Source: Pyrobaculum oguniense TE7
GTDB lineage: Archaea > Thermoproteota > Thermoprotei > Thermoproteales > Thermoproteaceae
DNA length: 64,000 bases
NCBI GenBank assembly: GCA_000247545.1
Contig: CP003316.1
Coordinates: 1,521,233 to 1,585,232, forward strand
Reading direction: 5' to 3'
The translations under genes were made by a program, and so were the position numbers. Below, in pieces: positions 31,099 through 48,138 of this stretch; the first letter of the stretch is position 1, and each line of letters opens with the position of its first letter. The notes below the pieces were generated by a model. It worked only from the letters and a program-made list of their open reading frames with translations, was not told the origin of the DNA and searched no databases.

Positions 31099-31393
31099 CG
31101 CCGTCTACCACCTCAACGGGATACCGCCTTATGGGCGGCGCGGGCTTGCCCTCGACTGTGCCCTCGCCCGAGACGAGATCCCAGACGCCCCCGTGCATAG
31201 CGCAGAGGAGCATAGGCCTTCCCTCTCTGTTCAGGAATATCCTGCCGATAAAGCCGAGAGGCCACTTGGCGTGGGGACAAAGCGACTCGAACGCGTAGAC
31301 CGAGCCGCCGAGCCTCGCCACGGCGCAGTGTCTGTTCCCCGCCACCACCACCTTGGGCTTCTCGCTGAACTCCTCCAGCCTCCCCGCCCTCAT
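31079..31393 (-). CDS. Rieske-type [2Fe-2S] ferredoxin
   Basis: This 104-residue soluble protein has both cluster halves: SLCPHAKWPLG (Cys-x-His) and LLCAMHGGVWDLVSGEGT (Cys-x2-His). This is the small ferredoxin type that feeds electrons to oxygenases, not the anchored bc-complex type. It has no disulfide Cys pair, as expected for the oxygenase class. The upstream di-iron gene overlaps it by ATGA, so the two are almost certainly partners. Confidence 0.88.
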   Translation of the reverse strand: MRAGRLEEFSEKPKVVVAGNRHCAVARLGGSVYAFESLCPHAKWPLGFIGRIFLNREGRPMLLCAMHGGVWDLVSGEGTVEGKPAPPIRRYPVEVVDGDVHVRL

Positions 31394-32193: not shown

Positions 32194-32217
32194 AAAAAAT
32201 AATCTTAATATCTATTT

Positions 32218-32853: not shown

Positions 32854-34319
32854 CTTTGCATTACCACCTTGCGGTCAGTGAAGAAGTCCACGGCGTCTAC
32901 TTGGGCGTGCAACACGCCGAAGAAGGACTTCTTGCGGCCGCCGAACGGGAAGTGGGGGGTGGGCTGGGCTATGGCCATGTTTATGCCTATGTTGCCGGCG
33001 TTGACGCGCCTGGCGAATTCCCTGGCGTATTTGCCGCTTGATGTGAATATAGATGCGGCGTTGCCGTATTTAGTCGCGTTGGCGAACTGCACGGCCTCTT
33101 CGAAGTTCCTGGCGTATATTATGGGGAGCACGGGGCCGAAGACCTCCTCCTGCGCGATCTCCATGTCCATGTGAACCTCGTCGAGGACCGTGGGCCCCAT
33201 GTAGAAGCCCTCCGGATAAGCCTCCACCCGGTAGCCCCTTCCATCCACCAGTGGCTTCGCGCCCGCCTCCACGGCCCTCGTCACCATCCCCTCCACCCTC
33301 TGCTTGGAGGCCGAGGAAATGAGCGGGCCCATATCTGTATTGGGGTCAAGCTGGTAGCCCACCCTAATCTTCTTGACCCTCTCGACTATGTGTCTCTTGA
33401 ACTTCTCATAGGCCTCGCCCACTAGGATGAGGTTGCCGGGTGCCAGACAACGCTGGCCCGCCATCACGAAGAACCCCGTGGCTATATTCTCCACGGAGTT
33501 GGTCAAGTCGGCGTCTGGCATAACCACCACGGGGTTCTTAGCCCCGGCCCCCACGAGCGCCCTCTTCCCATGGGCGGCGGCCAAGGCGTACACCTTTTCC
33601 CCCACCTTGGTGGACCCCACGAAAGCAACACCTACGACCTCCGGGTGCTTGATCAAGGCCTCAGCCGTCGACCCGTCGCCGTGTATCACGTTGAAAACGC
33701 CCGGCGGGTAGCCCGCCTTCTGGAAGAGCTCGCCGAGAGCCGCCGCGGGTATGGGGTCTTGCTCGCTGGGCTTGAGGACGACTGTGTTGCCTAGAGTGAT
33801 GGCCAAGGGGATGAACCACTGGGGTATCATCACAGGGAAGTTAAACGGCGTAATGATGGCGAAGACGCCCAGCGGCTCCCTCACGGTCTCCATGTCTATT
33901 TCGGGCTCCGTGTTTGCGATATTCATCACCTTCTTCACGTCGGCCAGGAAATGGGGGGACGCGAGAGCCATGTCGATAGCCTCTAGGCCCCTCCTAAGCT
34001 CCCCCACGGCCTCCGCAACGGTCTTGCCCACGTTTTTGGCCACCACCTTGGCCAGCTCCTCCATATTCTGCTCGTACACAATCTTCAGCCTCACCAAGTA
34101 CTGTAGTCTCTCGTAGATGGGGAGCCTCGACCACTTCTCGAACGCCGAGGCGGCGGCCCTCACGGCGGCATCCACCTCCGACGTAGACGCCACCGGCACC
34201 TCCCCAATCCTACTACCGAGGCCGGGGTCGTATGTGGGGAGTCTTTTATCTCCCCCCACCTCGTATCTCCCGTCGATGAACATCGGCACTACGCCGTAAG
34301 AATCCCTCAGACTTATCAT
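32844..34319 (-). CDS. Aldehyde dehydrogenase, methylmalonate-semialdehyde type
   Basis: This 491-residue NAD-dependent enzyme has TPFNFPVMIPQWFIP, the cofactor loop FVGSTKVG, and catalytic Cys in VMAGQRCLAPGN. Instead of the general-base motif of ordinary aldehyde dehydrogenases it has GAGAKNPVVVMPDAD, like the GAKNH region of the CoA-acylating methylmalonate-semialdehyde dehydrogenases. The C terminus (HFPFGGRKKSFFGVLHAQ) also fits that group. It may turn a semialdehyde from ring cleavage into an acyl-CoA. It sits between pps genes and the HAD gene. Confidence 0.85.
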   Translation of the reverse strand: MISLRDSYGVVPMFIDGRYEVGGDKRLPTYDPGLGSRIGEVPVASTSEVDAAVRAAASAFEKWSRLPIYERLQYLVRLKIVYEQNMEELAKVVAKNVGKTVAEAVGELRRGLEAIDMALASPHFLADVKKVMNIANTEPEIDMETVREPLGVFAIITPFNFPVMIPQWFIPLAITLGNTVVLKPSEQDPIPAAALGELFQKAGYPPGVFNVIHGDGSTAEALIKHPEVVGVAFVGSTKVGEKVYALAAAHGKRALVGAGAKNPVVVMPDADLTNSVENIATGFFVMAGQRCLAPGNLILVGEAYEKFKRHIVERVKKIRVGYQLDPNTDMGPLISSASKQRVEGMVTRAVEAGAKPLVDGRGYRVEAYPEGFYMGPTVLDEVHMDMEIAQEEVFGPVLPIIYARNFEEAVQFANATKYGNAASIFTSSGKYAREFARRVNAGNIGINMAIAQPTPHFPFGGRKKSFFGVLHAQVDAVDFFTDRKVVMQRWW

Positions 34320-34359
34320 AAAGAGTCAGCTCCTCAGGAGTTAAAAATGATTAGGAAAA

Positions 34360-35367
34360 TTATTTACTCTTTATCGACATTAAAGTTCTCACTATATCTT
34401 TAATTATATCTCCCGAGCTCTCCCATTTGTGGACCGCCTTCTTGGACCACACGGTCTCCGGCCTGCTCTGCAGGACGTAGACGTCATCGCCGTAGGCCCA
34501 CTCGACGTCGACGGGATGTCCGTAATATCTCTCAAGCCTCATCACCACGTCGGCTATCCTCAACGCTTGCTCGTCCGTGAGGGAGGGCCTCGAGGTCTCA
34601 TCCGGGGGCAACTCCTCCTCGACCACGGCGCCATCCCTCAGCGCATATTTCTTGGTCTTCTGATCCGAGATAACCCTCTTGATGATCTCGCCCGTGACCT
34701 TGCTCACATAGAATCTGTCGGGCGTCACCTCGCCGGACACCACAGCCTCGCCTAGGCCCCAGCTGGACTCTATAGCGACCACGGACTTATCACCGGTGGT
34801 TGGGTTGAGGGAGAAGGCAACGCCGGCTGACACCGGGTCGATCAGCTTCTGGATCACGACTGCCATGAGCACCTTCGAGGGCGGGATCTTGTTGTCAAGC
34901 TTATATGAAACGGCTCTCTCCACAAAATTACTGGCCCACACCCGTTTTACATACGCCCGCACGTCGCTACCCCTAACGCCGAGGTAGGTGTCGTGGATAC
35001 CCGCGAAGCTGAAATCGGGGGAGTCCTCGTAGGTGGCTGACGATCTGACCGCCAGATAGTCGTCGAGGAACTCCTCCTCCACCCTCCGTAGGTGCTCGTC
35101 CAGCTCAGGCGGTATGTCGCCCGCCAGGATCCTCTCCCTTATCTCCGCAACTATGGAAAACGGGTTCCCCTCACCTCTGTCTAATCTGGCCACGAGCTTG
35201 TCCAGATTATTGTACTCGAGATAAGCTCTGTAAGCCTGTGACGTTACCACATATCCAGGTGGCACTCTGGCGCCTGCCGCGATGAGCTCGCCAAGCGAGG
35301 CGCCCTTGCCTCCCGCCAGAGCCACGTCGGTTCTCCTCAGCTCTGGGATAGGGATTAAGTATTTCAT
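34360..35367 (-). CDS. ppsB: Phenylphosphate synthase ATP-binding subunit (PpsB-like)
   Basis: This 335-residue protein starts at ATG 35367, which overlaps the stop of the PpsA-like gene (ATGA). It matches the N-terminal ATP-grasp domain of PEP synthases: LAGGKGASLGEL, AVRSSATYEDSPDFSFAGIH, VAFSLNPTTGDKSVVAIESS, WGLGEAVVSGEVTPDRF, PVDVEWAYGDDVYVLQSRPE. The size is that of PpsB of Thauera (about 40 kDa), which with PpsA uses ATP to make phenylphosphate, AMP and phosphate from phenol. It lacks the His domain, which is supplied by the upstream gene. PEP synthase is excluded by this split. Confidence 0.82.
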   Translation of the reverse strand: MKYLIPIPELRRTDVALAGGKGASLGELIAAGARVPPGYVVTSQAYRAYLEYNNLDKLVARLDRGEGNPFSIVAEIRERILAGDIPPELDEHLRRVEEEFLDDYLAVRSSATYEDSPDFSFAGIHDTYLGVRGSDVRAYVKRVWASNFVERAVSYKLDNKIPPSKVLMAVVIQKLIDPVSAGVAFSLNPTTGDKSVVAIESSWGLGEAVVSGEVTPDRFYVSKVTGEIIKRVISDQKTKKYALRDGAVVEEELPPDETSRPSLTDEQALRIADVVMRLERYYGHPVDVEWAYGDDVYVLQSRPETVWSKKAVHKWESSGDIIKDIVRTLMSIKSK

Positions 35368-37220
35368 TCTAGGATCTCTACTACGCCCTTGTACCCGTCT
35401 ACCCTTATCCTTTGCCCGTCTTTTATTAGGCGGCTGGCGTTGCCCGTGCCCACCACCGCGGGAACGCCGTATTCCCTGGCCACTATAGCGGCGTGGGCCA
35501 TCAAGCCGCCTATGTCGGAGACAACAGCCTTGACCTTGGCGAATACCGGGCCCCAGGCTGGCGAGGTGTTGGGGCAGACCAGTATATCGCCCTCCTTCAC
35601 TTTGCTCAGCTCCTCCACGCTCCTCACCACCACGGCCTTGCCCTCCACCACGCCTGGCGAGGCCGGGAAGCCCTTGATGATCTTGCCGGCTGCGGCCGCG
35701 GTGCCTAGCCAATCATCGATGCGCTCCCTCGTGACGCCCCATAGCATCACGGTGAAGGGCTCTGTGACCACCTCGGGCGGTCTGCCGCTGGCTGGCGGCG
35801 TGATCGCCTGCTTCAGCTTGGCGAGGATCTCCTTTCTTTTCGCTATCTCCCTAGGCCAGTAGTACTTGCCCACAGTAGGCATCACGACGGCCCAGCTGGC
35901 CACTAGATCCATCAAGGCTTGGTATACCTCCATCCAGTTCATGTAGAAGATGTCGTCCTCCCTTTCCAAGAAGCCGTGCTTCACCAATATCCGCGCCACC
36001 TCCTTGACCTTCTGGTAGAACACCGTATGGCCCCAGTGCTCCACGTAGAAGTTGTGCTCCTCAACATAGGGGAATACGGTGCGAGCGATCTGAAGGTACT
36101 CCCTAAAAGTCTTCCTATCCTCGGGCGGGAGGAGCTCCTCGTACTTCCTCGCTATCTCGTCCCTCTGAGCCCTCAGCCTCTCGGTGGCCGTCTCCAGCGT
36201 TTCGCCGCGCTTGACCTTAACTATGTAGTCCTTGAGGAAGTTGAACGGGACATTTAAGTCGTCGATCCACCTCGGCTCGTGGTGGTAGAAGCCGATGCCC
36301 GTGGTGTAGTAGAACCACGGGTATTTGGCGTTGTTCCACTCCTGGAACCACCTCCTCTCCTTCTCGTTTGAGGAGCGGGAGAGCTCCGCCTCCATCTGCT
36401 CTGCGGATGTGAAGGACAAGATCCTATCAGCAACGCCCAGCTCCACGGCGAGCTTGGCAAGCCTGCGTAGCTCTAGATCGGGCTTGAACAATATTACGTC
36501 GATGCCGGCAACCATCAGCGCAATGTGCTGATCGGGTATGTCGGGAAACTTCTGCTTCATGAACTGGTAAAACAGGAGGTAGGCGGCGTAGCCCAAGTTC
36601 AACATCTCGAAGTGCTTCCACCACAGCCTCTGGTGCAGCATGATGAGCCTCAGCCAGTTCTCCACGAGACTATAGATAGACGGCGAAATACCCTTGTGCT
36701 CGAATACGACGCTCTCGTCCTCTAACTCGGGGAGATCCTTAAACTCGAGGCTCTCCATCTCCTTGACTATGCGCTCTGCCTCCGGCTTCCAGTACTTCTC
36801 ATATATCTCGTTCCAGTTCTGATAGTAGTGGCCCGCCCTCCTCTGGAAGTATTGGAGCCTCTTCTCCACCTCCTTTGGGTCTGTCACTGGCACGAAGGAT
36901 ATGAAGAGCTTCCCGTTCACTATCCTATGGGGTATGCCGTTTGCGGGCGGGACGACGAATATGCGGGAGTTATAAGCGGAGAGTACCACCTCCCAGTGCG
37001 TCGGGTGTATATCGTCAAACGGGTACATGACATCGTAGTGGTGTAACGCGTCGTGGTACCAGAACATGCTCCTCTCCCACTCGATGAGCTCCTTAGGCGC
37101 ATCTTTGCCGAACAGCACAGAGGCGGGCAGTCTATAATACAGATACATCCTCTTGTATGTCTCAACGTCTACGTCCTTAGGCAACTCTATTTCATCTAAA
37201 TAGGGGAATCTTGCCGACAT
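35364..37220 (-). CDS. ppsA: Phenylphosphate synthase His/substrate subunit (PpsA-like)
   Basis: This is a 618-residue protein (about 71 kDa). The N-terminal roughly 500 residues are the substrate-binding region (no ATP-grasp fold). The C-terminal 100 residues are the swivelling phosphohistidine domain: KGFPASPGVVEGKAVVV, NTSPAWGPVFAKVKAVVSDI, GGLMAHAAIVAREYGVPAVV with His at about 576. This equals the domain order and size of PpsA of anaerobic phenol degraders, where the His carries phosphate to the phenol oxygen. Coupled to ppsB by ATGA. A TATA box on this strand at 37241-37250 precedes it. The unusual point is the aerobic context. Confidence 0.82.
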   Translation of the reverse strand: MSARFPYLDEIELPKDVDVETYKRMYLYYRLPASVLFGKDAPKELIEWERSMFWYHDALHHYDVMYPFDDIHPTHWEVVLSAYNSRIFVVPPANGIPHRIVNGKLFISFVPVTDPKEVEKRLQYFQRRAGHYYQNWNEIYEKYWKPEAERIVKEMESLEFKDLPELEDESVVFEHKGISPSIYSLVENWLRLIMLHQRLWWKHFEMLNLGYAAYLLFYQFMKQKFPDIPDQHIALMVAGIDVILFKPDLELRRLAKLAVELGVADRILSFTSAEQMEAELSRSSNEKERRWFQEWNNAKYPWFYYTTGIGFYHHEPRWIDDLNVPFNFLKDYIVKVKRGETLETATERLRAQRDEIARKYEELLPPEDRKTFREYLQIARTVFPYVEEHNFYVEHWGHTVFYQKVKEVARILVKHGFLEREDDIFYMNWMEVYQALMDLVASWAVVMPTVGKYYWPREIAKRKEILAKLKQAITPPASGRPPEVVTEPFTVMLWGVTRERIDDWLGTAAAAGKIIKGFPASPGVVEGKAVVVRSVEELSKVKEGDILVCPNTSPAWGPVFAKVKAVVSDIGGLMAHAAIVAREYGVPAVVGTGNASRLIKDGQRIRVDGYKGVVEILE

Positions 37221-37240
37221 GTCATGAGATGCGATAATGA

Positions 37241-37250
37241 GATTATAAAG
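37241..37250 (-). promoter_or_regulatory. TATA box for ppsAB
   Basis: The reverse-strand CTTTATAATC is centred 26 bp before ATG 37220, the first gene of the ppsA-ppsB unit. Confidence 0.5.
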
Positions 37251-37389
37251 ATTTCCAAAAATTCTTACAAGTGATTATCTAAATATTTATGATTTTGTAA
37301 ATTTAAATTTATTTGTGGCAAATTAAAAACCCTAGGCGAGAAATAAAATTCCCAAAAAGAATATCTTGACGCAAACCCAAGCACGTTCC

Positions 37390-38166
37390 ATGAACAAGGT
37401 CGTCACATATTTTCTGGACGTGCAAGGCACGTTGGTGCGCCGGGATCCAGCCACCTTAAAGAGCAGACTTATTGGAGGGAGAGAAGCCTTGAGAAGAATC
37501 AGGGAAGTCGGCAAGAGGGTTTTTATCTTATCTAACGCCCCGCGACTCACGGAAGAGGTGCACAAAGACCTCGCCTCCGTAGGCCTTGATATAAGCCTAG
37601 AAGAGGTAATCACTTCTGCGCAAGTGACTGGGGAGTACGTCTTGAGAAAGTTCGGCCCGAGCAAGCTCTACGTGATCGGGTCGGACAGCTTCAAGGCAGA
37701 GCTGGCTAAATATGGCCACGAAGCAGTTGACGACGGGGCAGACGTCGTGGTGGTGGGGATCGACCGGCAGCTCACCTTCGAAAAGCTTAATAAGGCCTTC
37801 AACATGCTCCTCTCCGGCGCCAAGCTGGTGGCGGCGGGGATGTCTAGATTCATACCTGAGGAAAAGCCTACCATTTCCATCGGCCCCATAGCCATGGCCC
37901 TCTACTACGCCTCCGGGGTGCGGCCTATCAACACGGGGAAGCCCTCCCGCATAATGTATACATACGCCTTGATTAAGGCTAGGAGCTATCCCGAGGAGTC
38001 GGCTGTAGTAAGCGATGACTTGGAGGACCTAGTTATGGCTAAGCGGATGGGCATGTATACCGTCCTGGTCCTCACGGGTACCACCAAAAAGGAGGACCTA
38101 GAAAGAAGGGGCTTCAAGCCTGATCTGGTGTTGGAGAACGTAGATGAGTTAGCCAAATATATATGA
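37390..38166 (+). CDS. NagD-like HAD protein 1, altered motif I
   Basis: This protein of about 258 residues starts MNKVVTYFLDVQGTLVRRDP. It has HAD motifs I (FLDVQGTL), II (FILSNAPRL), III (TGKPSRIMYTYAL) and IV (VVSDDLEDLVMAKRMG), with a C2-type cap as in NagD/4-nitrophenylphosphatase relatives. The second Asp of motif I, the usual general acid, is Gln (DVQ). It is coupled (ATGA) to a paralogue and divergent from ppsAB. Family enzymes cleave aryl phosphates; in anaerobic phenol pathways a HAD protein is a subunit of phenylphosphate carboxylase. The start follows the better N terminus; TTG 37366 is an alternative. Confidence 0.75.
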   Translation: MNKVVTYFLDVQGTLVRRDPATLKSRLIGGREALRRIREVGKRVFILSNAPRLTEEVHKDLASVGLDISLEEVITSAQVTGEYVLRKFGPSKLYVIGSDSFKAELAKYGHEAVDDGADVVVVGIDRQLTFEKLNKAFNMLLSGAKLVAAGMSRFIPEEKPTISIGPIAMALYYASGVRPINTGKPSRIMYTYALIKARSYPEESAVVSDDLEDLVMAKRMGMYTVLVLTGTTKKEDLERRGFKPDLVLENVDELAKYI

Positions 38167-38981
38167 TAAGGCTGTTTGCCTTTGACGTCCACGGGGTTTT
38201 CATCACCAGAATACTCGACGACCCAGAGATTCTCGGCGGGCAGAAGCTGGTGGACGAGCTGAAGAGGCGCGGCTACAATGTTGCTGTTATAGCCAGCGGC
38301 TCCAACTGGAGCACTAAGGAGTACGCAGCGCGGCTGAGAAGCCTCGGCTTTAACTTCGACGACGACGAGGTGTGGCCCGCCAGCAGGGTGGCGGCCCTAC
38401 ACCTCTCGCGGCTATTCGGCAAGGCGAGGTGTCTAGTTCTAGGCGAGCCAGGCCTTGTCGATGAACTCACTGGATGGGGACACGAGGTCGTCGACGACTG
38501 GAGAATCGCCGAGGCCGTTGTGGTCGGGCTTGACAGACAGCTCACTTACAAAAAGCTCACCGACGCCATAAGGGCGGTGCATAGGGGGGCCTACTTCCTC
38601 GCAGTTAACAAGGTGAGGTGGTACTATATGCCGGGCGAGGGGCCGATCGCCTCGCCGGGCGCCATCGTCGCGGCTATCGAGTACCAGACGAGGAGGGAGG
38701 CCGTGGTGGTAGGCAAGCCCAGCGTGGTGCACTACTATACTGTGCTCTCCCACTTTGGGATCAAGCCTGAGGAGGCCGTGATGGTAGGCGACGATGTAGA
38801 GGCAGATCTCATACCCGCCAAGACGGTGGGGATGAAGACAGTGCTTGTGTCTTCGGTGGATAGAACCGATAAGCAAGAGGCGCCGCCCAAGGCAGTGGAC
38901 ATAGCCATTAGCCACGTGGATGAGCTACTTAAATACGTAGACAATGGTCAATTATATATTATGTCAGAAAAAGTTAAATAA
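38163..38981 (+). CDS. NagD-like HAD protein 2, altered motif I
   Basis: This 272-residue paralogue of the preceding gene has motif I FAFDVHGVF, with His replacing the general-acid Asp, II VIASGSNWS, III VVGKPSVVHYYTV and IV MVGDDVEADLIPAKTVG. Shared segments such as VVGLDRQLTYKKL against VVGIDRQLTFEKL show a tandem duplication. The two may form one heterodimer. Loss of the general acid suggests slow turnover, binding only, or a changed reaction on a phosphorylated aromatic. A short extra tail (NGQLYIMSEKVK) extends past the common end. Confidence 0.75.
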   Translation: MIRLFAFDVHGVFITRILDDPEILGGQKLVDELKRRGYNVAVIASGSNWSTKEYAARLRSLGFNFDDDEVWPASRVAALHLSRLFGKARCLVLGEPGLVDELTGWGHEVVDDWRIAEAVVVGLDRQLTYKKLTDAIRAVHRGAYFLAVNKVRWYYMPGEGPIASPGAIVAAIEYQTRREAVVVGKPSVVHYYTVLSHFGIKPEEAVMVGDDVEADLIPAKTVGMKTVLVSSVDRTDKQEAPPKAVDIAISHVDELLKYVDNGQLYIMSEKVK

Positions 38982-39000
38982 TTCCAAATATTTACATATA

Positions 39001-39990
39001 ATGTCCCGCGGTCGCTATCTCCGGCGAATTCAAAAAATTAAAACCGGTAGCTTCATGGTCAGTCTCCCCATGGACTGGGTTAAGCGGAATAACCTCTCAT
39101 CCCAATCACCTGTCTTCGTGATAGAGGATCCCAACAACAACGTAGTGGTGCGCATTCCCACTTCAAAATGCCTCGTGGAGGTGAACGTGAGCCAGCTGAG
39201 TATAAGCGTTTTAGAGGACGTCTTAAAGATTCTGTATATGCAAGGGCTATCAAAGATTATTCTAAAGTCCGAGACCGGGTTCTCAGAAGAGGTAGTTAGG
39301 TTGGTTAGATCTCTGAGGCAAGATCTCATAGGCTACGAGGTTGAGGATATAGGCTTTAAGCAGATTATAATCGAAGTGAAGGACTCCATCGAGTATGTAG
39401 ATAGCGAGACGTTTATGCGTTATTTTAAGAAGTCGTTGAGATACTTAAAATCGGCTCTAGCATCTCTGCCTTCTCACGTCCAGTCGTACAACGCGAAGAA
39501 TGTAAAGGAGGTGTTGCTGGAGGCCAAGAGGACATACCGCTACCTTGCCCGCCTGCTAGCTTTGGCGCTAAAAGAGCCGGAAAGAAATGGCCTCCCCGCA
39601 TCGCTACATGTAGTATATATAGAGAATATAACGAGACTTAGGGAAATTGCATACTACATATACAGGATGGTGGATTTCGTAGAGAGCTTGACGCCGAAGG
39701 ACGTAGAGCTTCTCAAGCCTATGATATCGGTAGTTAGTAGGGCTATAGACCTGCTAGAAAATGGCCTCGATATAGATGCGTTAGCGTCTCTAAGGGAGGA
39801 GGTCAATTCCTCAGAGGAGGCGTTAATCGCGCAAACGCACAACCCGAAGCTAATCCACTCCGCCTTTGCCCTACGTCGTATTATGCACAACCTTCTCAGA
39901 ATAGTAGAGAATTTCTACGCCGTGGCAAAAGTGCAAGACGTCAAGTGCGTGGCGGAGGAGCTGGAAAAAACAGTGGAGTTTAGTGGCTAG
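39001..39990 (+). CDS. AbrB-like/PhoU-like regulator
   Basis: This 329-residue protein starts MSRGRYLRRIQKIKTGSFMV. Residues 10-50 (SLPMDWVKRNNLSSQSPVFV, then VVVRIP) resemble the swapped-hairpin AbrB/SpoVT DNA-binding domain. Residues from about 150 are helical with repeated Glu/Asp/Arg-rich segments, as in PhoU-type archaeal regulators. These are linked to phosphate uptake or signalling. It lies directly after the HAD pair and could regulate the island or phosphate use. It ends convergently with the LigA-like gene, overlapping by four bases. Confidence 0.65.
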   Translation: MSRGRYLRRIQKIKTGSFMVSLPMDWVKRNNLSSQSPVFVIEDPNNNVVVRIPTSKCLVEVNVSQLSISVLEDVLKILYMQGLSKIILKSETGFSEEVVRLVRSLRQDLIGYEVEDIGFKQIIIEVKDSIEYVDSETFMRYFKKSLRYLKSALASLPSHVQSYNAKNVKEVLLEAKRTYRYLARLLALALKEPERNGLPASLHVVYIENITRLREIAYYIYRMVDFVESLTPKDVELLKPMISVVSRAIDLLENGLDIDALASLREEVNSSEEALIAQTHNPKLIHSAFALRRIMHNLLRIVENFYAVAKVQDVKCVAEELEKTVEFSG

Positions 39991-40262
39991 AAGCTGGGGT
40001 CATTTATTCTCTTCACGTACTCGTCTCTTTTTATCCCAAGAACATGGGCGAGGTGGTAGAGCAGAAGTTGGTGCACACCCATCTTGTATAATGTATACAA
40101 GCGTCCCTCCTTTAGGAGGGGCCAAAAACGCTTGTCAATGCCGTATTCGGCCATTACGGCATCCGGCTCTTTTTTAAACCGCTCCCTTATCTCGGGCCTT
40201 AGGTGGAAATCCCTCAGCAACCGCTCGATTTTAAAGATCTCGTTTCTGCTTACGGTCTCCAT
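39987..40262 (-). CDS. LigA-like small subunit of extradiol dioxygenase
   Basis: This 91-residue helical protein has DFHLRPEIRERFKKEPDAVM, then AEYGIDKRFWPLLKEGRL and MGVHQLLLYHLAHVLG. It matches the alpha (LigA) subunit of protocatechuate 4,5-dioxygenase-type enzymes, which covers the active site of the LigB subunit. It overlaps the LigB-like gene by 13 bases. Confidence 0.8.
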   Translation of the reverse strand: METVSRNEIFKIERLLRDFHLRPEIRERFKKEPDAVMAEYGIDKRFWPLLKEGRLYTLYKMGVHQLLLYHLAHVLGIKRDEYVKRINDPSF

Positions 40263-41080
40263 ACCGCCCAGGCGCTGCCTATGTTGTAGCCCGGCACGTA
40301 GTCCACCACCTCCGCGGGCTTTCCCCTCATGACGCCCCAGACCACCACCCAGTTTAGAATTTCGTAAGAGCCTCCACCTGTGGCGAAAACCTCGTCCGGC
40401 GTCAGAGCCAGCGCTGACCTCACATCGCCGCTTGCCAGATATGAGAGGAACCTCTTGTCAAATTCCTCGTCAACATAGCCCCATCTCGGCCCTCCCGGGT
40501 CGTGGGAAAGCCCCCCAGTAGCCAGAACAGCTACTCTTAATTGCTCGGGATAGCTCTCCAGCGCCTCCCTCATGGCCAAGCCCAGCTGGTATCCCCTAGC
40601 CAGAGACGGGACGGGCTTAACAAAGGCGTTGGTCAAGACCGGGACAACCGGGTATTTAATAACGCCGCGTTCCCTATCGCCGGCGAGGAAGTGGAGCGGA
40701 TTCATAGTGGCGTGGTCGAGGAGCGGGTTGCTGGAAAAAGCCACGTCGAATCCCTTGTCCACCAAGCTCTTCAAGAGGTACTCAGCCAGCCTCCTGTGTA
40801 TCCTCACCTTGTATTTAGGTATTCTGAGCCATTCATAGTCCGGAGGCCCCTCATACTCGTCGGCGACTACTATGAGGAACTGGGGAATTATCTCGAACAT
40901 GTAGGTAACGTGGTCGTTGGCGACGGTGACTATCACGTCTGGCTTCGTCTCCTCTAACACCCCCCGTAGCTTTTCGTAATTCGAGTACACCCTGGCCCTC
41001 TTCTCTGGCGGCTCCTCCTCAGCTCTTGCAGTAATTCCAGGAGCGTGGGTCGCTGCAAGACCTAAAACCATCCTCGCCAT
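40250..41080 (-). CDS. LigB-like class III extradiol ring-cleavage dioxygenase
   Basis: This 276-residue protein of the LigB family has GLAATHAPGI near the N terminus (iron-ligand His), DVIVTVANDHVTYMFE (second His), VLATGGLSHDPGG, and TGGGSYEILNWVVVWGVM near the end. Such enzymes use Fe(II) and O2 to open catechol-type rings next to the hydroxyls, and need O2. With the LigA-like gene downstream it forms a two-subunit dioxygenase. This is the strongest single sign that the island breaks down aromatic rings aerobically. Confidence 0.85.
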   Translation of the reverse strand: MARMVLGLAATHAPGITARAEEEPPEKRARVYSNYEKLRGVLEETKPDVIVTVANDHVTYMFEIIPQFLIVVADEYEGPPDYEWLRIPKYKVRIHRRLAEYLLKSLVDKGFDVAFSSNPLLDHATMNPLHFLAGDRERGVIKYPVVPVLTNAFVKPVPSLARGYQLGLAMREALESYPEQLRVAVLATGGLSHDPGGPRWGYVDEEFDKRFLSYLASGDVRSALALTPDEVFATGGGSYEILNWVVVWGVMRGKPAEVVDYVPGYNIGSAWAVWRP

Positions 41081-41161
41081 GATACCATGGGGGTTAATCG
41101 TTAAAAAAATACCTCAAATTTAATTCGATAGTTTAATGTTTAAATTAAATAAAAGTTTTTG

Positions 41162-41797
41162 CTAACATCGCGGCACCACTGCCCTCTCCAATAGTATCGG
41201 AATTATCTGAAGGGCGTCTCCCACTACGCCGAGGTCGGCCACTTTGAATATGTCCGCATGTCTATTTACATTAACCGCCACGATATAGCGCGCGTTTCTA
41301 ATGCCCACCAAGTGGTTTATGTGGCCTGAAACGCCGAAAGCTATATAAAGCTTCGGCGCGATGGCCCTGCCAGATACGCCGACTTGCACCTTATAGGGTA
41401 ACCACCCCGCGAGCACCACATTGCGGGTAGCGGCGACGGCGGCGCCGAGCTTTTTAGCAAGCGCGATGGCCAACTCTACGTTTTCTCTGCGCTTTAGCCC
41501 CCTCTCCACGCCAATCACCACTTCGGCCCCCTCAAGATCGGGGTGGCCTATATCAACTGGGCGTCTGGCCAAGATAGAGATCCGTCCGCCAGCGTGCATC
41601 ACGACCCGCGTCACCTCGCCCCTGCGGCCAGGGTTGGGGACGAGAGGCTTGAACATGCCGGGTCTCGCCGTGGCCATCTGTGGCTTTGTCTTCGTTGTTA
41701 TAAGCGAGACCACGTTGCCGCCGAAGGCCGGCTTATGCATAACAAGCTTGCCTTCTTTTACATCAAAATTCATACAGTCGGCGGTAAGCCCTATCAC
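41162..41797 (-). pseudogene. etfA: 3' fragment of electron-transfer flavoprotein alpha gene
   Basis: The 211 codons match only the C-terminal FAD domain of EtfA: IGLTADCMNF, ERGLKRRENVELAIALAKKL, GAAVAATRNVVLAGWLPYKV, QVGVSGRAIAPKLYIAFGVS, GHINHLVGIRNARYIVAVN, FKVADLGVVGD. The N-terminal domain of about 110 residues that contacts the beta subunit is missing, and no etfB gene is near. Upstream in this frame the sequence turns at once into the other fragment (41763-42185). It is best read as a deletion remnant; expression of a lone FAD domain is possible. Confidence 0.7.
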
Positions 41798-42185
41798 TGG
41801 CCAAGTTCCTCCACTCGCCGGCCTTCCCGAATTTGGCCATGCGGGCCTCTCCCGGGACGGCCTTGTATTCAGGTATGGGTTTTGCCGTTATGTGGATGCA
41901 GAACGCGCCTCCGTGGTAGGCGGGATCTAGTTTTCTGTCCAGTTCGGCCCTCAGCGCTGCATCGCGCACGGCGAATTGATCCATTTGCCGCTGGTTAGTC
42001 ACATACTCCCTATGGGTGACCTTATAGGAGGTGTCGTATTGCTCAGCCCAGACGTCTATGGGCAGATAGGGCAAACTGTGCATATCTACGGGAAATAGCT
42101 CCTTCTCTCTGACGTATTTCGGCGTCAACTCAAGCCTGTTTGCTGGGTCGTAGTACTCGTCTCTCGTAGGAAGTCTTGGCTCCAT
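41763..42185 (-). pseudogene. 5' fragment of toluene-monooxygenase-type hydroxylase alpha gene
   Basis: The first about 125 residues follow the N terminus of TmoA-type di-iron hydroxylase alpha subunits: TPKYVREKELFPVDM, YDTSYKVTHREYVTNQRQMD, PEYKAVPGEARMAKFGKAGE, RNLAS. Glu of PEYKAV corresponds to the first iron ligand. The gene ends where the DExRH helix should follow, so five of six ligands and about 370 residues are missing. After RNLAS the frame runs out within a few codons and overlaps the etfA fragment out of frame. It cannot be an active oxygenase. Confidence 0.7.
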
Positions 42186-42336
42186 TTTTGTTGTTTGCAC
42201 GACCACAATTTTTGTAATTTTTTCAGAAATATTTCTCAATATTTATTATAGAAAAATTTAAAATATATCAAAATAAGAAGACATAAAATGTACTTCTAGG
42301 GAAAATTTTTTGAGAGAAGGAAATAAAATTCAAACG

Positions 42337-42642
42337 CTAAATCTCCACGTATACGGCCCCGTCCTTTATCACCGCCTCATACGTCCTTATGTAGTACTTA
42401 TATCCTTTCAATTCCCCCTCGCCTGTTTCTAGGTTGTAGACAGTGCCGTGGCCCTTGCACGTCAAATGCCCGTCCCTGTACGTGCCGAGGCTGAGCAACC
42501 ATCTACCGTGGGGGCATATGCCGTCGGCCACGTAGATCTTATCTCCGTCTTTAACCACCAAGAGCGCCTTCGTGCCTACCGCGACGGGCACCGGCGCCTT
42601 CTCCGGCAACTTAGCCACCTCGATGACCTTTACCATTACCAT
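42337..42642 (-). CDS. Rieske-type [2Fe-2S] ferredoxin
   Basis: This 101-residue protein starts MVMVKVIEVAKLPEKAPVPV. Cluster ligands are in DGICPHGRWLL (Cys-x-His) and LTCKGHGTVYNLETGEGE (Cys-x2-His). It is the soluble oxygenase-ferredoxin type. The start overlaps the helical-Rieske fusion gene by seven bases, so both are made together. It probably transfers electrons to that protein or to the di-iron proteins. Confidence 0.88.
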   Translation of the reverse strand: MVMVKVIEVAKLPEKAPVPVAVGTKALLVVKDGDKIYVADGICPHGRWLLSLGTYRDGHLTCKGHGTVYNLETGEGELKGYKYYIRTYEAVIKDGAVYVEI

Positions 42643-43607
42643 GGCACCCTCACGTAGATTACTCCATCGGCGATCTTTACTTGGTACCTCGGGAGGGTTC
42701 TCGCCTCGCCGTGGTTGGGGTGTAGTATAACCCTGCCGCTCCTGGCGTCGAAGGTGGCGTGATGGGCGAGGCAGGTGAGCTGCTTGCCCATTAGGTAGCC
42801 GTAGTGGAGCGGGTCCCGCTCGTGGGTGCACCAGTTCTCAAACGCCGCGACGACGCCGTCGACGTATGTCAGCAAGACCTCCCTCCAGAGGCCCACGACG
42901 GCCATCTTCTTGCCCACGCGCTGTAGCTCATCTACTGTGGCGACCCTCTCCCATTGGGTGTCTGGTAGCTGCGGACCCCCATCATCTACAACCTCGGGGG
43001 GTTGGAAGAAGTCGAAGTAGATTGGCGTGATGGCGTTAAACAGCTCTAGGTCGACCCCCTCTCTGTCCGGCTTGTTAACGCCAACGGCCTGTAGGGCGTC
43101 GTCTATGACCTTTATCTCGTCCTCTTCCCTCATGTATGCCAGATAGGCCAGCTGGGCTACGTGTCGGTTGTTAGCGTTGTAGGCAGCCGCCCTATATCCC
43201 GTGTGGGTGAACTTCACGGCGATCCTTGCCGCCATGAGGCCCCTCTTGATATCCTTCTTCGCCACGCCTACGACGTAGTCCATCAGCTCCTTGATCTTGG
43301 GAGGTATCCGCAGCCCGTTGAGGCCCAGCGCTCTAGATGCCACGAACCACCTCCTATACACGCTGCTCTCGTGCCAGTCCACGATCCAGCCCATCTTGTG
43401 GTATATATCGGGCTCCGCCATGAGCTCCGGCCTCTCTACGGCGGCCCTCACTAGTTGTATTGTAAACAGCTCTTCCAGCAACTTCTGTTGCACGAACCTC
43501 CTGTAACCGTAGAGACCGGGATCGCGCCTAAACCACTCCACCCAGCTTTCGTGAAGTGTAAATTCGAACTCGTCTATCTTATCCCTAGTTGCGATTGGTG
43601 TTTGCAT
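42636..43607 (-). CDS. Helical domain fused to a Rieske domain
   Basis: This is a 323-residue protein. Residues 1 to about 205 are mostly helical with conserved-looking segments (KMGWIVDWHESSVYRRWFVA, HTGYRAAAYNANNRHVAQLA, YMREEDEIKVIDDAL) that I cannot assign; no ExxH di-iron motif is seen. Residues 225-323 are a Rieske domain with Cys260/His262 (NWCTHERDP) and Cys279/His282 (LTCLAHHATFD). A fusion of this type would deliver electrons within one chain. It may be a reductase or coupling component for the di-iron oxygenases. Operon with the Rieske ferredoxin downstream. Confidence 0.7.
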   Translation of the reverse strand: MQTPIATRDKIDEFEFTLHESWVEWFRRDPGLYGYRRFVQQKLLEELFTIQLVRAAVERPELMAEPDIYHKMGWIVDWHESSVYRRWFVASRALGLNGLRIPPKIKELMDYVVGVAKKDIKRGLMAARIAVKFTHTGYRAAAYNANNRHVAQLAYLAYMREEDEIKVIDDALQAVGVNKPDREGVDLELFNAITPIYFDFFQPPEVVDDGGPQLPDTQWERVATVDELQRVGKKMAVVGLWREVLLTYVDGVVAAFENWCTHERDPLHYGYLMGKQLTCLAHHATFDARSGRVILHPNHGEARTLPRYQVKIADGVIYVRVPW

Positions 43608-43629
43608 ATAGGTTGGTTTTCAATATTTT

Positions 43630-44157
43630 TTAATAGTTATCAAAATCTATTTTATTTAATTTTGCGCAATATAAGGCGAGAGCCGCCGTGGCTCTCAGAT
43701 CCTCTATCTCCATCTTATGGGCTTTTTCGCACGCCTCTGACAGAGGGATTTTGACCACTTCGATCACCTCATATGGCTCCGGGGAGATCCTACCTGGAAT
43801 CGTGTCGCGCGCGAGAAATATATGTGCCACCTCTGTGCTGTATCCGGGGCTCACGATGCCCTTAAATAGAAGCTCTAATGAAGTCGGCTTGAAACCCGTC
43901 TCCTCCTCCAGCTCCCTCGCGGCGGCATCCTCAGGCGTCTCGCCGTCTGCCACCACGCCGGACGGGAGCTCAAGGGTGTAGCGGCCTAGAGCAGGGCGGT
44001 ACTGCCTCACGAAGAGCACATCCCCGTCGTGAAGTGCCAGCACCGTCACCACAGGCGGGAAGACCACCCTCTCAGCGGTGGTTTCTAGGCCGTTAGGAAG
44101 GCGCACCGGCCCTCCCTCCACCGTAATCCTCTTCCCCCTGTACTTGACCTCCATCAT
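43630..44157 (-). CDS. Nudix hydrolase, ADP-ribose pyrophosphatase-like
   Basis: This 175-residue protein has the Nudix box GETPEDAAARELEEETGF in SGVVADGETPEDA..., preceded by FVRQYRPALGRYTLELPSG, typical for ADP-ribose or nucleotide-sugar pyrophosphatases. ATG 44157 overlaps the stop of the upstream Rieske gene by four bases (ATGATGG). A direct role in aromatic metabolism is not obvious; it may clean up a nucleotide by-product. Confidence 0.85.
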   Translation of the reverse strand: MMEVKYRGKRITVEGGPVRLPNGLETTAERVVFPPVVTVLALHDGDVLFVRQYRPALGRYTLELPSGVVADGETPEDAAARELEEETGFKPTSLELLFKGIVSPGYSTEVAHIFLARDTIPGRISPEPYEVIEVVKIPLSEACEKAHKMEIEDLRATAALALYCAKLNKIDFDNY

Positions 44158-44507
44158 AGAACAGTGGGGGACGCCACCACTGGGAGATCTACATATATGT
44201 ACCCGTCTACCTCAACAGCAGCGTAAACCCTAAGCTTATTGCTAGGCTTTCCCTGTACTGCGCCCTCGCCTGTAGACAGCGACCAGAGGCCGCCGTGTCC
44301 TTTGCATAATACTTTCACATCGCCGTCAGCTCCCACAAAGCACATGCCAGAGGCGCCTAGATTCCACTTGCTGTGTGGGCAAAAGGCTTCAAAGACAACT
44401 ACTCTCCCGTTAACCCTCGCGAGGGCTACCGGCGTGATGCCGACTATCTTAACAACAGGCTTGCCGCCCTCGGGCACCTCCGCGGATCTGGCGACTTTTA
44501 CAAACAC
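44154..44507 (-). CDS. Rieske-type [2Fe-2S] ferredoxin
   Basis: This 117-residue protein has cluster halves FEAFCPHSKWNLG and VLCKGHGGLWSLSTGEGAVQ, very like the Rieske at 31079-31393. It has no membrane segment. It lies just downstream of two di-iron proteins in the same orientation and is their likely electron donor, mirroring the pairing at 31.1-32.2 kb. Confidence 0.88.
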   Translation of the reverse strand: MFVKVARSAEVPEGGKPVVKIVGITPVALARVNGRVVVFEAFCPHSKWNLGASGMCFVGADGDVKVLCKGHGGLWSLSTGEGAVQGKPSNKLRVYAAVEVDGYIYVDLPVVASPTVL

Positions 44508-44555
44508 ATATACGAACCCCTTGGTAGATTTTAAATTCCCGAAAAATTATTTTAT

Positions 44556-45338
44556 TTATATTGCCCTCTTCTCGGAAAGCTCTACCCTTCTCACCCTAGC
44601 CTCGGTGGAGACTCTAAGCGCCTCTGCGGCGCATTCCAGGATGTTCCGAATAGCCTCAGGCGATCTGGCATACTTCTCCCACATCCTCTCCGCGATGGAC
44701 CAGTGGAAGAGCTCATCGTCCTCTATCTCGCGGAAAGACTCTCTCAACATCTCGGCGGCCTTTGCGTAGGGCCCGGAGTACAGTTGCCTATTCCTCTCCA
44801 AGTTGTCGTGCACCCCTCTGTGGTGGTACACGCTGGTGAGCTCCACGACTTGGAGGGTAGAGGTGAGCCTCACCTGGAGGTACTTCGGGTTCTTCGGCGC
44901 GCAGACGAAGGGGAGCTCAAACAACTCCACCCACTCCTTTATCGGCTTAAATCCCTCCATGGAGCCGCCGAAGGCCTTCAGTATTCTGCTTCTGAGGTAT
45001 AGGTGGCGCCCCTCGTCCGCGATCTGCTGGGCAAACATGGTCATGAACTCCGTATCTATGTAATCTCTATATTCATTGATAGATCTTGCCACGTCTGATG
45101 CGGCTGCCCACTCGTTCCACACGCCTTGCCTCAGCCACGCGATCACGCCGGGGACGTCGGTTGTGGTCGCCCAGGCTGAGCCTATTTCGTAGTGGAATTG
45201 TAGCACGGGATCGGCGGCCGCCTTGAACCAATCCACGAACTCCACGGGGGATTTAAACGCCGTGGCGTCTACCTCCTTTATCTTAGCCCACACATCCTTG
45301 ACTTGTTCTACTTTTTCCCAAAGTTTTTCGTAGACCAT
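44556..45338 (-). CDS. Di-iron oxygenase-like protein B
   Basis: This 260-residue paralogue of the proteins at 31390 and 45394 has the ligand set intact: Glu76 (WNEWAA), Glu109/His112 (ADEGRHLY), Glu166 (QVVELTSVYHHRGVHDN), Glu209/His212 (EDDELFHW). It ends RVELSEKRAI, nearly the same as paralogue C, so B and C are recent relatives. It begins about 55 bp after paralogue C. Prediction: O2-activating catalytic subunit. The paralogues may form a mixed complex as in other multi-subunit di-iron enzymes. Confidence 0.75.
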   Translation of the reverse strand: MVYEKLWEKVEQVKDVWAKIKEVDATAFKSPVEFVDWFKAAADPVLQFHYEIGSAWATTTDVPGVIAWLRQGVWNEWAAASDVARSINEYRDYIDTEFMTMFAQQIADEGRHLYLRSRILKAFGGSMEGFKPIKEWVELFELPFVCAPKNPKYLQVRLTSTLQVVELTSVYHHRGVHDNLERNRQLYSGPYAKAAEMLRESFREIEDDELFHWSIAERMWEKYARSPEAIRNILECAAEALRVSTEARVRRVELSEKRAI

Positions 45339-45393
45339 GGACTATTGCCGTTTTTCGTATTAAAAAAAGCGTAAAATTTAATTTAATTGATTG

Positions 45394-46197
45394 CTAAATG
45401 GCCTTCTTCTCGGATAGCTCCACGCGCCTGATCCTAGCCTCCATCGCGGCCCGCAACGCGCCTCCTGCGCAGTCCAGTATCTCCGCCCTCGCCTCGGGCG
45501 TGTTGGCGTACTTCATCCACACCCTTTCGGCAATGGACCAGTGGAAGAGCTCGTCGTCCTCTATCTCCCTGAAGGTCTCCATGAACAACTGGGACGCCTC
45601 CCTATACGGCTGAACCCACAGCCTCGGGTTGTTGGGGAAGTTGTCATGCACCCCTCTGTGGTGGTACACGCTGGTGAGCTCCACGACTTGTAGCGTCGAG
45701 GTCAGCTTGACTTGGAAGTACGGCCACTCTAGCCTCTTGGAGGCGCATCTCAGCGGGAAGTCGAACAGCTCAACCCACTCCTTTATGGGCTGGAAGCCCT
45801 CCATAGAGCCCCCGTACATCTTCAACACCTTGGACCTTATGTAGTAGTGTCTGCACTCGTCGGAGATCTGTTGCGCCAACACGTTCATGAACTCGGTGTC
45901 TATCAAGTCGCGGTATTCGGTAATGGATCTGGTGATCACCGTGTTCGCGGCCCACTCGTTCCACACGCCTTGCCTCAGCCACGCGACCACGCCGGGGACA
46001 TCGGCGTTGAGGATCCACTGGGCCCCTATCTGGTACTGGACGTTGAGTAGCGGATCCACAAAGGCCTTGAACCAATCTATGAACTCAACTGGCGTTTTGA
46101 ACTGGGCTAGGAACTGCCTATCGTTTTTCAGCTTCTCCATTTCGTCCAGGATATACCTCCGCTCTTGATACATCTGCTTTAATTTTTCAGCAGACAT
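45394..46197 (-). CDS. Di-iron oxygenase-like protein C
   Basis: A 267-residue protein with di-iron ligands Glu81 (WNEWAAN), Glu114/His117 (SDECRHYY), Glu173 (VVELTSVYHHRGVHDN) and Glu216/His219 (EDDELFHW). It shares most of its length with paralogues A and B. The first-shell ExxH motif has Cys beside the Glu (DECRH). It is the first gene of the unit C-B-Rieske-Nudix. The sequence upstream (46198-46251) is AT-rich and holds its promoter. Confidence 0.75.
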   Translation of the reverse strand: MSAEKLKQMYQERRYILDEMEKLKNDRQFLAQFKTPVEFIDWFKAFVDPLLNVQYQIGAQWILNADVPGVVAWLRQGVWNEWAANTVITRSITEYRDLIDTEFMNVLAQQISDECRHYYIRSKVLKMYGGSMEGFQPIKEWVELFDFPLRCASKRLEWPYFQVKLTSTLQVVELTSVYHHRGVHDNFPNNPRLWVQPYREASQLFMETFREIEDDELFHWSIAERVWMKYANTPEARAEILDCAGGALRAAMEARIRRVELSEKKAI

Positions 46198-46251
46198 ATT
46201 CCCCCTTATGCGAATCCCTAATAAATAATTCGAAAAATTAAGTAAAATAAT

Positions 46252-47233
46252 TTAATGTATTTGTATAATTACCTTGCCGAGCCTCTCGGGGCTGTCAAGC
46301 GCCTTAAGGGCCTCGCCGGCTTGATCCAGCCTATACCTCTGCGATATCGGCGTCTTGATCCTGCCTCTCTCGGCGAGCTCCACGAGAACGGCGAGATCCC
46401 CCCTCCTCCCCCCCGGTGCTCCCCAACACCGACAGCTGTGCGCCGTAGAGCCTCCTGAGGTCGAGCCTCACCTCGCCCCCCGTGAGGGCGCCCGCCGTTA
46501 CGTACCTCCCGCCCCTGGCCAGCATGGAGAAGCTCAGCTCCCAAGTCCCGGCGCCGAGCGGGTCCACCACGACGTCGAAGCCGCCCGCCCTAGACGCCTC
46601 CTGAGGGGTCAGCACCTCGTCGGCGCCCAGCCTCTTGAGCTCTGTCGCGAACTTATCGGCCCTCCTGGTCACCGCCACGACGTAGGCCCCCATCAGCTTA
46701 GCCAGCTGGACGGCGAACACGCCGACGTTCCCCGTGGCCCCCACCACGGCCACTCTCTCGCCCGGCGACACCCCGGCCCTCCTCAGCATGTTATAGGCAG
46801 TGAGGCCGCCCACCGGCAGGCCCACCACGTCCTCGAAGGGGGCTGAGGTCCTCACCAAGTTCCTCGCTGGGACGGAGGCGAGCTCTGCCCAGCCGCCGTG
46901 TGTGGCGACGCCAATTATCCCCCCGGTCTCGCACAGCTGCGTCTCGCCCTTCAAGCAGTGCCGACAGACGCCGCAGAACAGCCTATTGTACACAACAACG
47001 CGGTCCCCCCTCTTGAAATCGCTGGCGCCGGGGTCGAGGACCTCCCCCACGAACTCGGCCCCGGGGACGTGCGGGATGGGCCTCGCCTGCACAGATCCAG
47101 TCACTGTGAATCTGTCTATGGGGTTTACGACGGCCAGCGTAACCCTTAGGAGAACCTCGCCGTGTTTATGCTCGGGGTTTGGGAAATCGCCTACTATAAG
47201 CTCGCCCGGCTTTTCAAAAAAGGCCGCCTTCAT
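46252..47233 (-). pseudogene. Zinc-type alcohol dehydrogenase/quinone-reductase family gene with poly-G frameshift
   Basis: The open part (47233 to about 46415) is a medium-chain dehydrogenase: GAEFVGEVLDPGASDFKRGD, CGVCRHCLKGETQLC (structural-zinc lobe), VVGATGNVGVFAVQLAKLMG (NAD(P) loop). The last 55 codons (LAVLVELAERGRIKTPIS, ending GKVIIQIH at TAA 46252) are in another frame. The switch lies at seven C on the + strand (46408-46414), where six would keep the frame. It is one extra base: a mutation, slippage site or sequencing error. FAH gene upstream overlaps by ATGA. Confidence 0.75.
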
Positions 47234-48138
47234 TCCTCCACCACGTAGTTCCTCAGCCTCCCCACCGACTCGACCTCAGCCTCCACCATGTCACCGCCTT
47301 TTAGGAACTTGCCCTTGGGGAAGCCCACGCCCGGCGGAGTGCCGGTGAATATCATGTCGCCGGGCTTGAGGGTTATGCCCTGGGACGCCCAGTGTATCAA
47401 CTGCTGGACGCTGAAGATTAGGTCTGAGGTGTTGCCCTCTTGCTCCAGCTGGCCGTTTACCCACAGCCTAAGCCCCAGCTTGTTCGGATCGGGGACCTCG
47501 TCCTTAGTAACAATCCAAGGCCCCACCGGCGCGGCTGTGTCCATGGACTTGCCCCATATCCAGTTTTGCCCGTATGGATTGAGTTGTTGCGGCCATCCCG
47601 GCGGGAACTGCCAATCCCTTATCGACACATCGTTGCCTACTGTATAGCCAAAGACGTAGTCAAGCGCCCTCTCGGGGTCGATGTACTTGCCAGCTCTCCC
47701 AATGACAACCACAAGCTCCACTTCCCAGTCTACCTTCTGCGCCACTTTGTGCTTTATTATGCGGCCCTCGTGGCCGACCAGCGCGTTGGGGAACTTGGGG
47801 AAGAGGTAGGGCCTTTCAGGCGGCCTAACCCCGGCTTCTTGGCCGTGAGCCCTGTAGTTAACCGCCACGGCGAATATCTTCTCCGGATCGGGGACCGGCG
47901 GCTCCCAAACAAACTCGCCGGGGGCGTAAAAGGGCCCCTTAGCCCTGGCCTCCAACTTTTTAACTACTTCAAGGGCAGGCTCACCCACGGCGATTAGTTT
48001 TTTCATGCTGTAGAGAAAATCCGGCGCCTCGTATGTGCCAAACACTTGCTTATACGCCTCGGGGAGATCTAGAACTCTCCCCTCTTTCCAAAGCCCTACT
48101 TTTGTCACTTCCCCTTTTCTAAACGTAACTAACTTCAT
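47230..48138 (-). CDS. Fumarylacetoacetate-hydrolase-family enzyme
   Basis: This 302-residue protein has the FAH fold: KIFAVAVNYRAHGQEAGVRP, metal-binding VDWEVELVVVIGRAGKYI, VGNDVSIRDWQ, WGKSMDTAAPVGPWIVTKDE, and DMIFTGTPPGVGFPKGKFLK. Members hydrolyse, isomerise or decarboxylate 2-oxo-dienoic acids made in meta ring cleavage. With the LigAB-type dioxygenase it would form the lower pathway. It overlaps the dehydrogenase gene by four bases. Confidence 0.87.
   Translation of the reverse strand: MKLVTFRKGEVTKVGLWKEGRVLDLPEAYKQVFGTYEAPDFLYSMKKLIAVGEPALEVVKKLEARAKGPFYAPGEFVWEPPVPDPEKIFAVAVNYRAHGQEAGVRPPERPYLFPKFPNALVGHEGRIIKHKVAQKVDWEVELVVVIGRAGKYIDPERALDYVFGYTVGNDVSIRDWQFPPGWPQQLNPYGQNWIWGKSMDTAAPVGPWIVTKDEVPDPNKLGLRLWVNGQLEQEGNTSDLIFSVQQLIHWASQGITLKPGDMIFTGTPPGVGFPKGKFLKGGDMVEAEVESVGRLRNYVVEE

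What the first reader, a model, noticed from the sequence alone, without database searches (positions are those of the whole stretch)
41162..42185. Deletion scar joining a monooxygenase alpha gene to etfA
Reverse-strand reading shows an N-terminal piece of a toluene-monooxygenase-type hydroxylase (through RNLAS) that turns, at about 41800, out of frame into EtfA at PVIGLTADC. Everything between, including the remaining iron ligands, other subunits and the N-terminal half of EtfA, is missing. Sulfolobus solfataricus carries a complete enzyme of this type, so an ancestor here may have had one. It suggests an older phenol/toluene monooxygenase was lost, while the small di-iron proteins remain.
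Basis: partly seen in the sequence, partly recalled or inferred. Interest (0 to 1): 0.75.

Follow-up and report, generated by a model that had tools for sequence, protein, structure and literature searches.

The report
Remnant of a deleted toluene monooxygenase
In this heat-loving archaeon (Pyrobaculum oguniense) the first half of a toluene/phenol monooxygenase gene, apparently acquired from Sulfolobus-type archaea, is joined out of frame to the last two thirds of an unrelated electron-transfer gene; it is an ordinary kind of genomic scar, useful as a record of a lost enzyme.

Summary
On the minus strand, window 42185-41799 encodes the first ~130 residues of a Sulfolobales-type toluene monooxygenase alpha subunit (TmoA-N). 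Within at most 7 nt it passes out of frame into the C-terminal ~210 residues of an EtfA (41791-41162). The TMO piece is 71% identical to intact Sulfolobales TmoA-N, branches inside that clade (95/94), and keeps one of six iron ligands. No other TMO subunit occurs in the window; no other Phenol_Hydrox hit passes the cut-off in the genome. The EtfA piece lacks ~115 N-terminal residues and has no EtfB partner. Both pieces have changed at positions that homologues keep. None of 44 other Thermoproteales genomes has a TMO trace, including three that keep the neighbouring genes. Best reading: a horizontally acquired TMO operon removed by a deletion ending inside a downstream, separately diverged etfA. 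One Sulfolobaceae genome shows an independent scar of the same kind. No undeleted version was found, so a single deletion is inferred, not shown. The "small di-iron proteins" nearby are not TMO relatives by sequence; their fold matches HDO-type oxidases, and they belong to a separate, conserved, mostly intact cluster.

The parts
41763..42185 (-). TmoA-N pseudogene fragment, 140-aa open frame (ATG 42185 to TGA 41763); the first ~130 aa are TMO hydroxylase alpha N-terminus, the last 10 (DRAYRRLYEF) are read out of frame through etfA
   Evidence: Pfam Phenol_Hydrox 2.5e-13; 71% to Sulfolobales TmoA-N; PDB T4MO/ToMO alpha
41792..41798 (-). junction: 7 nt (AGTGATA) between the last TMO codon (GCC, 41801-41799) and the first homologous EtfA codon (GGG, 41791-41789)
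   Evidence: alignments; junction sequence printed
41162..41791 (-). etfA 3' fragment: C-terminal part of the ETF domain plus complete FAD-binding ETF_alpha domain; N-terminal ~115 aa missing; out of frame with the TMO piece
   Evidence: Pfam ETF_alpha 1.4e-28, ETF 114-176/181; PDB EtfA chains from residue ~115 on
42337..42642 (-). small Rieske protein immediately upstream of the scar; pairs with the fused protein 42636-43607 in related genomes, so not the TMO's own ferredoxin (context only)
   Evidence: Pfam Rieske 7.8e-13; Rieske sequence beside the fused gene in G003, G017 and G018
39987..41080 (-). intact LigB (40250-41080) and LigA (39987-40262) ring-opening dioxygenase genes immediately downstream of the scar (context)
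   Evidence: Pfam LigB 3.2e-44, LigA 3e-7; conserved in G003 and G017

Best explanation
The 1,024-bp stretch is a non-functional deletion scar. Shown: half a Sulfolobales-type tmoA-N is joined, out of frame and within at most 7 nt, to the last two thirds of an etfA; the remaining TMO genes were not found in the window and no other Phenol_Hydrox protein passes the cut-off in the genome; no third EtfB exists. Inferred: an ancestor of P. oguniense acquired a Sulfolobales-type TMO operon beside its aromatic-degradation genes. An etfA lay downstream in the same direction. One illegitimate recombination (no long repeats at the ends) or a series of deletions then removed the rest of tmoA-N, tmoA-C/B/C/D/E, any etfB and the start of etfA. 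The two remaining frames have begun to lose conserved residues but have not yet gained stop codons, so the event is fairly recent on the evolutionary scale.
For: Domain and homology boundaries. No other Phenol_Hydrox match above the cut-off in the own genome and no TMO subunit in the window. ETF census of the own genome: two complete A/B pairs plus this orphan piece. Phylogenetic placement of the TMO piece with Sulfolobales G098 at 95/94, branch 0.31 against 0.10. At 24 positions invariant among 11 other TMO alphas the fragment differs at 4 (W24L, P57S, K72M, R124K in alignment columns); 10 of those 11 differ at 0 or 1 in the equivalent test. The EtfA piece differs at 4 of 27 near-invariant positions, where most homologues differ at none. 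Codon-position differences 29/21/85 against G098 show that most divergence happened while the protein was still constrained. Independent parallel: Sulfolobaceae G127 has tmoA-N, with stops, joined directly to the 3' end of the DUF59 gene of the TMO cluster.
Against: No genome with the undeleted arrangement was found, so neither the single-event deletion nor the former TMO-etfA adjacency is shown. P. arsenaticum, the closest relative, was not recognisable among the genomes searched and is reported to lack this region (PMC3558965). Both frames remain free of stops. The constraint tests are small samples: one other TMO alpha (L086, Xanthobacter Py2) also deviates at 9 of 33 positions, and a few divergent EtfAs deviate as much as the fragment. 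The EtfA piece is so divergent (tree branch 1.82) that its origin is unclear.
Confidence: 0.88

Rival explanations
1. Both short frames are functional small genes: a 140-aa TMO-like protein and a FAD-domain-only EtfA translated from GTG at 41797 with overlap-coupled initiation.
For: Both frames are open; the overlap (41763-41797) could allow coupled translation; the FAD-binding ETF_alpha domain is complete.
Against: The TMO piece keeps one of six iron ligands and lacks its partners. The EtfA piece lacks most of its ETF domain and has no EtfB. Conserved residues are lost in both. No relative carries the TMO frame.
Confidence: 0.04
2. The scar was made elsewhere and arrived ready-made: the region was acquired already containing the TMO-etfA junction, so P. 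oguniense never had a working TMO.
For: No other Thermoproteales genome searched has TMO; the region is absent from P. arsenaticum (PMC3558965); the EtfA piece is not from the Pyrobaculum EtfA lineage.
Against: Base composition of both pieces (GC 0.55-0.57, GC3 0.65) is close to the host and far from Sulfolobales tmoA (GC 0.38-0.42), so the DNA has spent long in a GC-rich genome; with the frames still open, the break is more likely later than the transfer.
Confidence: 0.2
3. Assembly chimera: two unrelated loci were joined falsely in the published genome.
For: The junction is abrupt.
Against: The genome was finished with 59x 454 coverage and 500x SOLiD mate pairs (PMC3558965). Neither fragment has its missing partner sequence elsewhere in the genome above the family cut-offs, which a chimera would leave behind.
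Confidence: 0.03

Closest known systems
Sulfolobales toluene/phenol monooxygenase (S. solfataricus Sso1225-1233, split tmoA Sso1227/Sso1228; PMC7820114)
   Same: The first ~130 residues are 67-71% identical to intact Sulfolobales TmoA-N, and the tree places the piece inside that clade.
   Different: Only half of TmoA-N remains; tmoA-C, B, C, D and E are absent; five of six iron ligands are lost; frame broken.
Decayed TMO locus in another Sulfolobaceae genome (G127, L030)
   Same: tmoA-N joined to the 3' part of a downstream gene, operon interior removed.
   Different: Ends in the DUF59 gene of the TMO cluster rather than in an etfA; already carries stops and a 5-bp insertion.
EtfA / FixB-type electron transfer flavoprotein alpha (PDB 7koe, 5ol2; the genome's own two copies)
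   Same: Complete FAD-binding ETF_alpha domain, 35-48% identity.
   Different: N-terminal ~115 residues missing, no EtfB partner, several conserved residues changed.

Membership tests
Toluene/phenol monooxygenase hydroxylase alpha (TmoA; Pfam PF02332) | Sequence match to the family | tested here: met
   Phenol_Hydrox 2.5e-13, above cut-off, but only profile positions 2-106 of 230
Toluene/phenol monooxygenase hydroxylase alpha (TmoA; Pfam PF02332) | Complete di-iron ligand set (E104, E134, H137, E197, E231, H234 in T4moH/ToMO) | tested here: not met
   Only the E104 equivalent (in PEYKA) is present; the frame leaves the family at chain residue 128 before the ExxH motifs (alignment). The ligand list is from general knowledge of T4moH/ToMO.
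Toluene/phenol monooxygenase hydroxylase alpha (TmoA; Pfam PF02332) | Encoded with beta, gamma, effector, Rieske and reductase partners | tested here: not met
   No TmoA-C, B, D or E in the window; TmoC only weakly matches Rieske genes of the other cluster; no other PF02332 match above cut-off in the genome
Electron transfer flavoprotein alpha (EtfA) | C-terminal FAD-binding ETF_alpha domain | tested here: met
   PF00766 positions 1-81 of 81, 1.4e-28
Electron transfer flavoprotein alpha (EtfA) | N-terminal ETF domain | tested here: not met
   PF01012 matched only at 114-176 of 181
Electron transfer flavoprotein alpha (EtfA) | Partner EtfB gene | tested here: not met
   Genome-wide PF01012 finds two complete A/B pairs and this orphan piece only

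The most novel reading that the evidence does not exclude
P. oguniense once ran a Sulfolobales-type toluene/phenol monooxygenase, acquired across archaeal orders, and lost it because the adjacent intact cluster already supplied another aerobic aromatic route. That cluster has a phenylphosphate-synthase-like pair, HAD phosphatases, HDO-like di-iron proteins with Rieske partners, and LigAB. It would be an undescribed hyperthermophilic pathway through phosphorylated phenols that displaced a classical monooxygenase.
Probability: 0.2. Interest if true: 0.65.

Novelty: new member of a known kind. Interest (0 to 1): 0.3.

Why it matters
It is the only trace of a bacterial-type multicomponent monooxygenase found in the 45 Thermoproteales genomes searched. 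It suggests that a Sulfolobales-type TMO crossed into a neutrophilic hyperthermophile and was lost again, beside an intact aromatic-degradation cluster that may have made it redundant. As a scar in itself it is ordinary.

Tried and rejected
Scanning GTDB genome contigs with the TMO piece gave no confirmed relative; with the EtfA piece only distant EtfAs, at most 40%. An undeleted locus in relatives: none; G003, G017 and G018 keep the neighbouring aromatic cluster but have neither TMO nor etfA in the stretches compared. Repeat-mediated deletion: no long direct repeat at the junction in 40-44 kb. Bacterial promoter/terminator scan: nothing above expectation for promoters and not suited to archaea. 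Origin of the EtfA piece by duplication of a Pyrobaculum EtfA: not supported, since it branches outside them on a very long branch. Structure of the fused protein 42636-43607: low-confidence model, not used. Papers on Pyrobaculum with toluene monooxygenase, phenylphosphate synthase or extradiol dioxygenase: only one hit, in a paper on ubiquitin-like proteins. The idea that the small di-iron proteins are TMO subunits: no Pfam match above cut-off, no solved-structure sequence match, and the best fold matches are HrmI, TenA, CADD and UndA types; a ferritin-like ligand set is not excluded.

Full report
Where it is. The window lies at 1,521,233-1,585,232 of a 2,436,033-bp chromosome in a genome of 2,452,920 bases (contig length). 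These are exactly the sizes published for Pyrobaculum oguniense TE7 (2,436,033 + 16,887 bp; PMC3558965). The scar is therefore at chromosome 1,562,394-1,563,417. That paper lists 1,540-1,565 kb as a region present in P. oguniense and absent from its closest relative P. arsenaticum, described there as containing aerobic terminal cytochrome genes; P. arsenaticum thus cannot show an undeleted version.

The observation. Reading the minus strand, an ATG at 42185 opens a 140-codon frame. Its first ~130 residues match Pfam Phenol_Hydrox (2.5e-13, positions 2-106 of 230), the alpha chains of T4MO and ToMO (2e-18 to 9e-17) and, much more closely, the TmoA-N proteins of Sulfolobales (67-71%). The match ends at GCC (41801-41799). 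From GGG (41791-41789) another frame matches EtfA to its C-terminus. Seven nucleotides between them, AGTGATA, cannot be assigned to either parent.

What is missing. In Sulfolobales tmoA is split. In S. solfataricus Sso1227 and Sso1228 are annotated as amino- and carboxy-end fragments, and the cluster Sso1225-1233 is strongly induced on phenol (PMC7820114). Intact TmoA-N has 268 residues in the genomes read here. The P. oguniense piece covers residues 4-136 and keeps only the E104-equivalent ligand (the ligand list itself is from general knowledge of T4moH). TmoA-C, B, D and E are absent from the window; TmoC shows only weak similarity to Rieske genes of the neighbouring cluster. No other Phenol_Hydrox protein passes the cut-off in the genome. 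The EtfA piece lacks about 115 N-terminal residues. The genome has two complete EtfA/EtfB pairs and no third EtfB.

Is either piece still functional? At 24 positions invariant among 11 other TMO alphas from archaea and bacteria, the fragment differs at 4; in the leave-one-out test 10 of the 11 differ at 0 or 1, and one divergent Xanthobacter sequence differs at 9 of 33. The fragment also lacks two codons present in all the others. The EtfA piece differs at 4 of 27 near-invariant positions, while 30 of the comparison proteins differ at none. Differences from the nearest TmoA-N fall 29/21/85 on codon positions 1/2/3, so most divergence built up while the protein was constrained. Together this fits genes that worked until fairly recently and are now drifting. 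The samples are small, and the absence of stop codons means that function is unlikely rather than excluded.

Origin. The TMO piece groups with G098 inside the Sulfolobales TMO clade (95/94), on a branch three times longer than its sister's. Of 45 Thermoproteales genomes (own included) no other has a TMO trace. Horizontal transfer from a Sulfolobales-type donor is the simplest reading. The composition (GC 0.55, GC3 0.65) is near the host's and far from the Sulfolobales genes, so the transfer is not very recent. The EtfA piece is at most 48% identical to anything found and sits alone on a long branch; it is not a copy of the host's own EtfA, and its source is unknown.

Mechanism. The arrangement (two genes in the same direction, both broken inside, everything between missing) is what a deletion leaves. 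No long repeat was found at the ends, which suggests illegitimate joining. A close parallel exists: in Sulfolobaceae genome G127, tmoA-N, already carrying stops, runs directly into the 3' end of the DUF59 gene that closes the TMO cluster, with the interior removed. What could not be shown is an undeleted relative, so a single event and the former TMO-etfA adjacency remain inferred.

The neighbours. The genes on both sides belong to a cluster shared with G003, G017 and (on a short contig, in part) G018, none of which has the scar. It includes LigAB, an FAA hydrolase, an aldehyde dehydrogenase, a phenylphosphate-synthase-like pair (PPDK_N and PEP-utilizer proteins), HAD phosphatases, Rieske proteins and three ~265-residue paralogues without a Pfam family. 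The paralogues conserve E81, E114xxH117, E173 and E216xxH219. A confident model (pLDDT 94.9) aligns best with the N-oxygenase HrmI (Z 18.6, rmsd 3.4, 226 residues) and with TenA, CADD, PqqC and UndA; MiaE is at Z 15.8. Foldseek E-values were weak (best 2.4e-3), so the fold class is suggestive and the di-iron centre is inferred from the residues. These proteins are therefore probably not remnants of the lost TMO.

Verdict. The finding is correct in observation and in its main interpretation. It is an ordinary deletion scar with an interesting evolutionary message: a Sulfolobales-type monooxygenase entered and left a Pyrobaculum lineage that keeps a different, uncharacterised aromatic-degradation cluster.

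Noticed in passing
window 28215-48138: Aromatic-degradation-like cluster largely shared with G003 and G017 (partly G018): phenylphosphate-synthase-like pair (34360-35712 PPDK_N, 35364-37220 PEP-utilizer; second PEP-utilizer 29350-31098), HAD phosphatases (32218, 37366, 38163), inositol-phosphatase-like 28613, ALDH 32844, LigAB, FAA hydrolase. It could be an aerobic route through phosphorylated phenols.
   Followed up: partly
window 31390-32193, 44556-45338, 45394-46197 (all -): Three ~265-aa paralogues with no Pfam family, conserved E81 / ExxH 114-117 / E173 / ExxH 216-219, model pLDDT 94.9, best fold matches HrmI, TenA, CADD, UndA (Z 16-19). Possible new di-iron oxygenase family.
   Followed up: partly
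window 42636-43607 (-): Fusion of a ~210-aa helical N-terminal domain without Pfam match to a C-terminal Rieske domain, 74-75% identical in three other genomes.
   Followed up: partly
window 46331-47233 (-): The alcohol-dehydrogenase-like gene is frameshifted near its C-terminus in a G-rich stretch; intact homologues of 331-333 aa exist in G003 and G017. Either a second lesion in this locus or a 454 homopolymer error.
   Followed up: partly
L030 15750-16500 (G127, Sulfolobaceae): Independent TMO scar: tmoA-N with a 5-bp insertion and stops, joined to the 3' end of the DUF59 gene that closes the TMO cluster.
   Followed up: yes
G188:C23:5252-5992 (L065): A homologue of the 265-aa paralogues, 45% identical, with three stop codons inside: apparently a pseudogene.
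   Followed up: no
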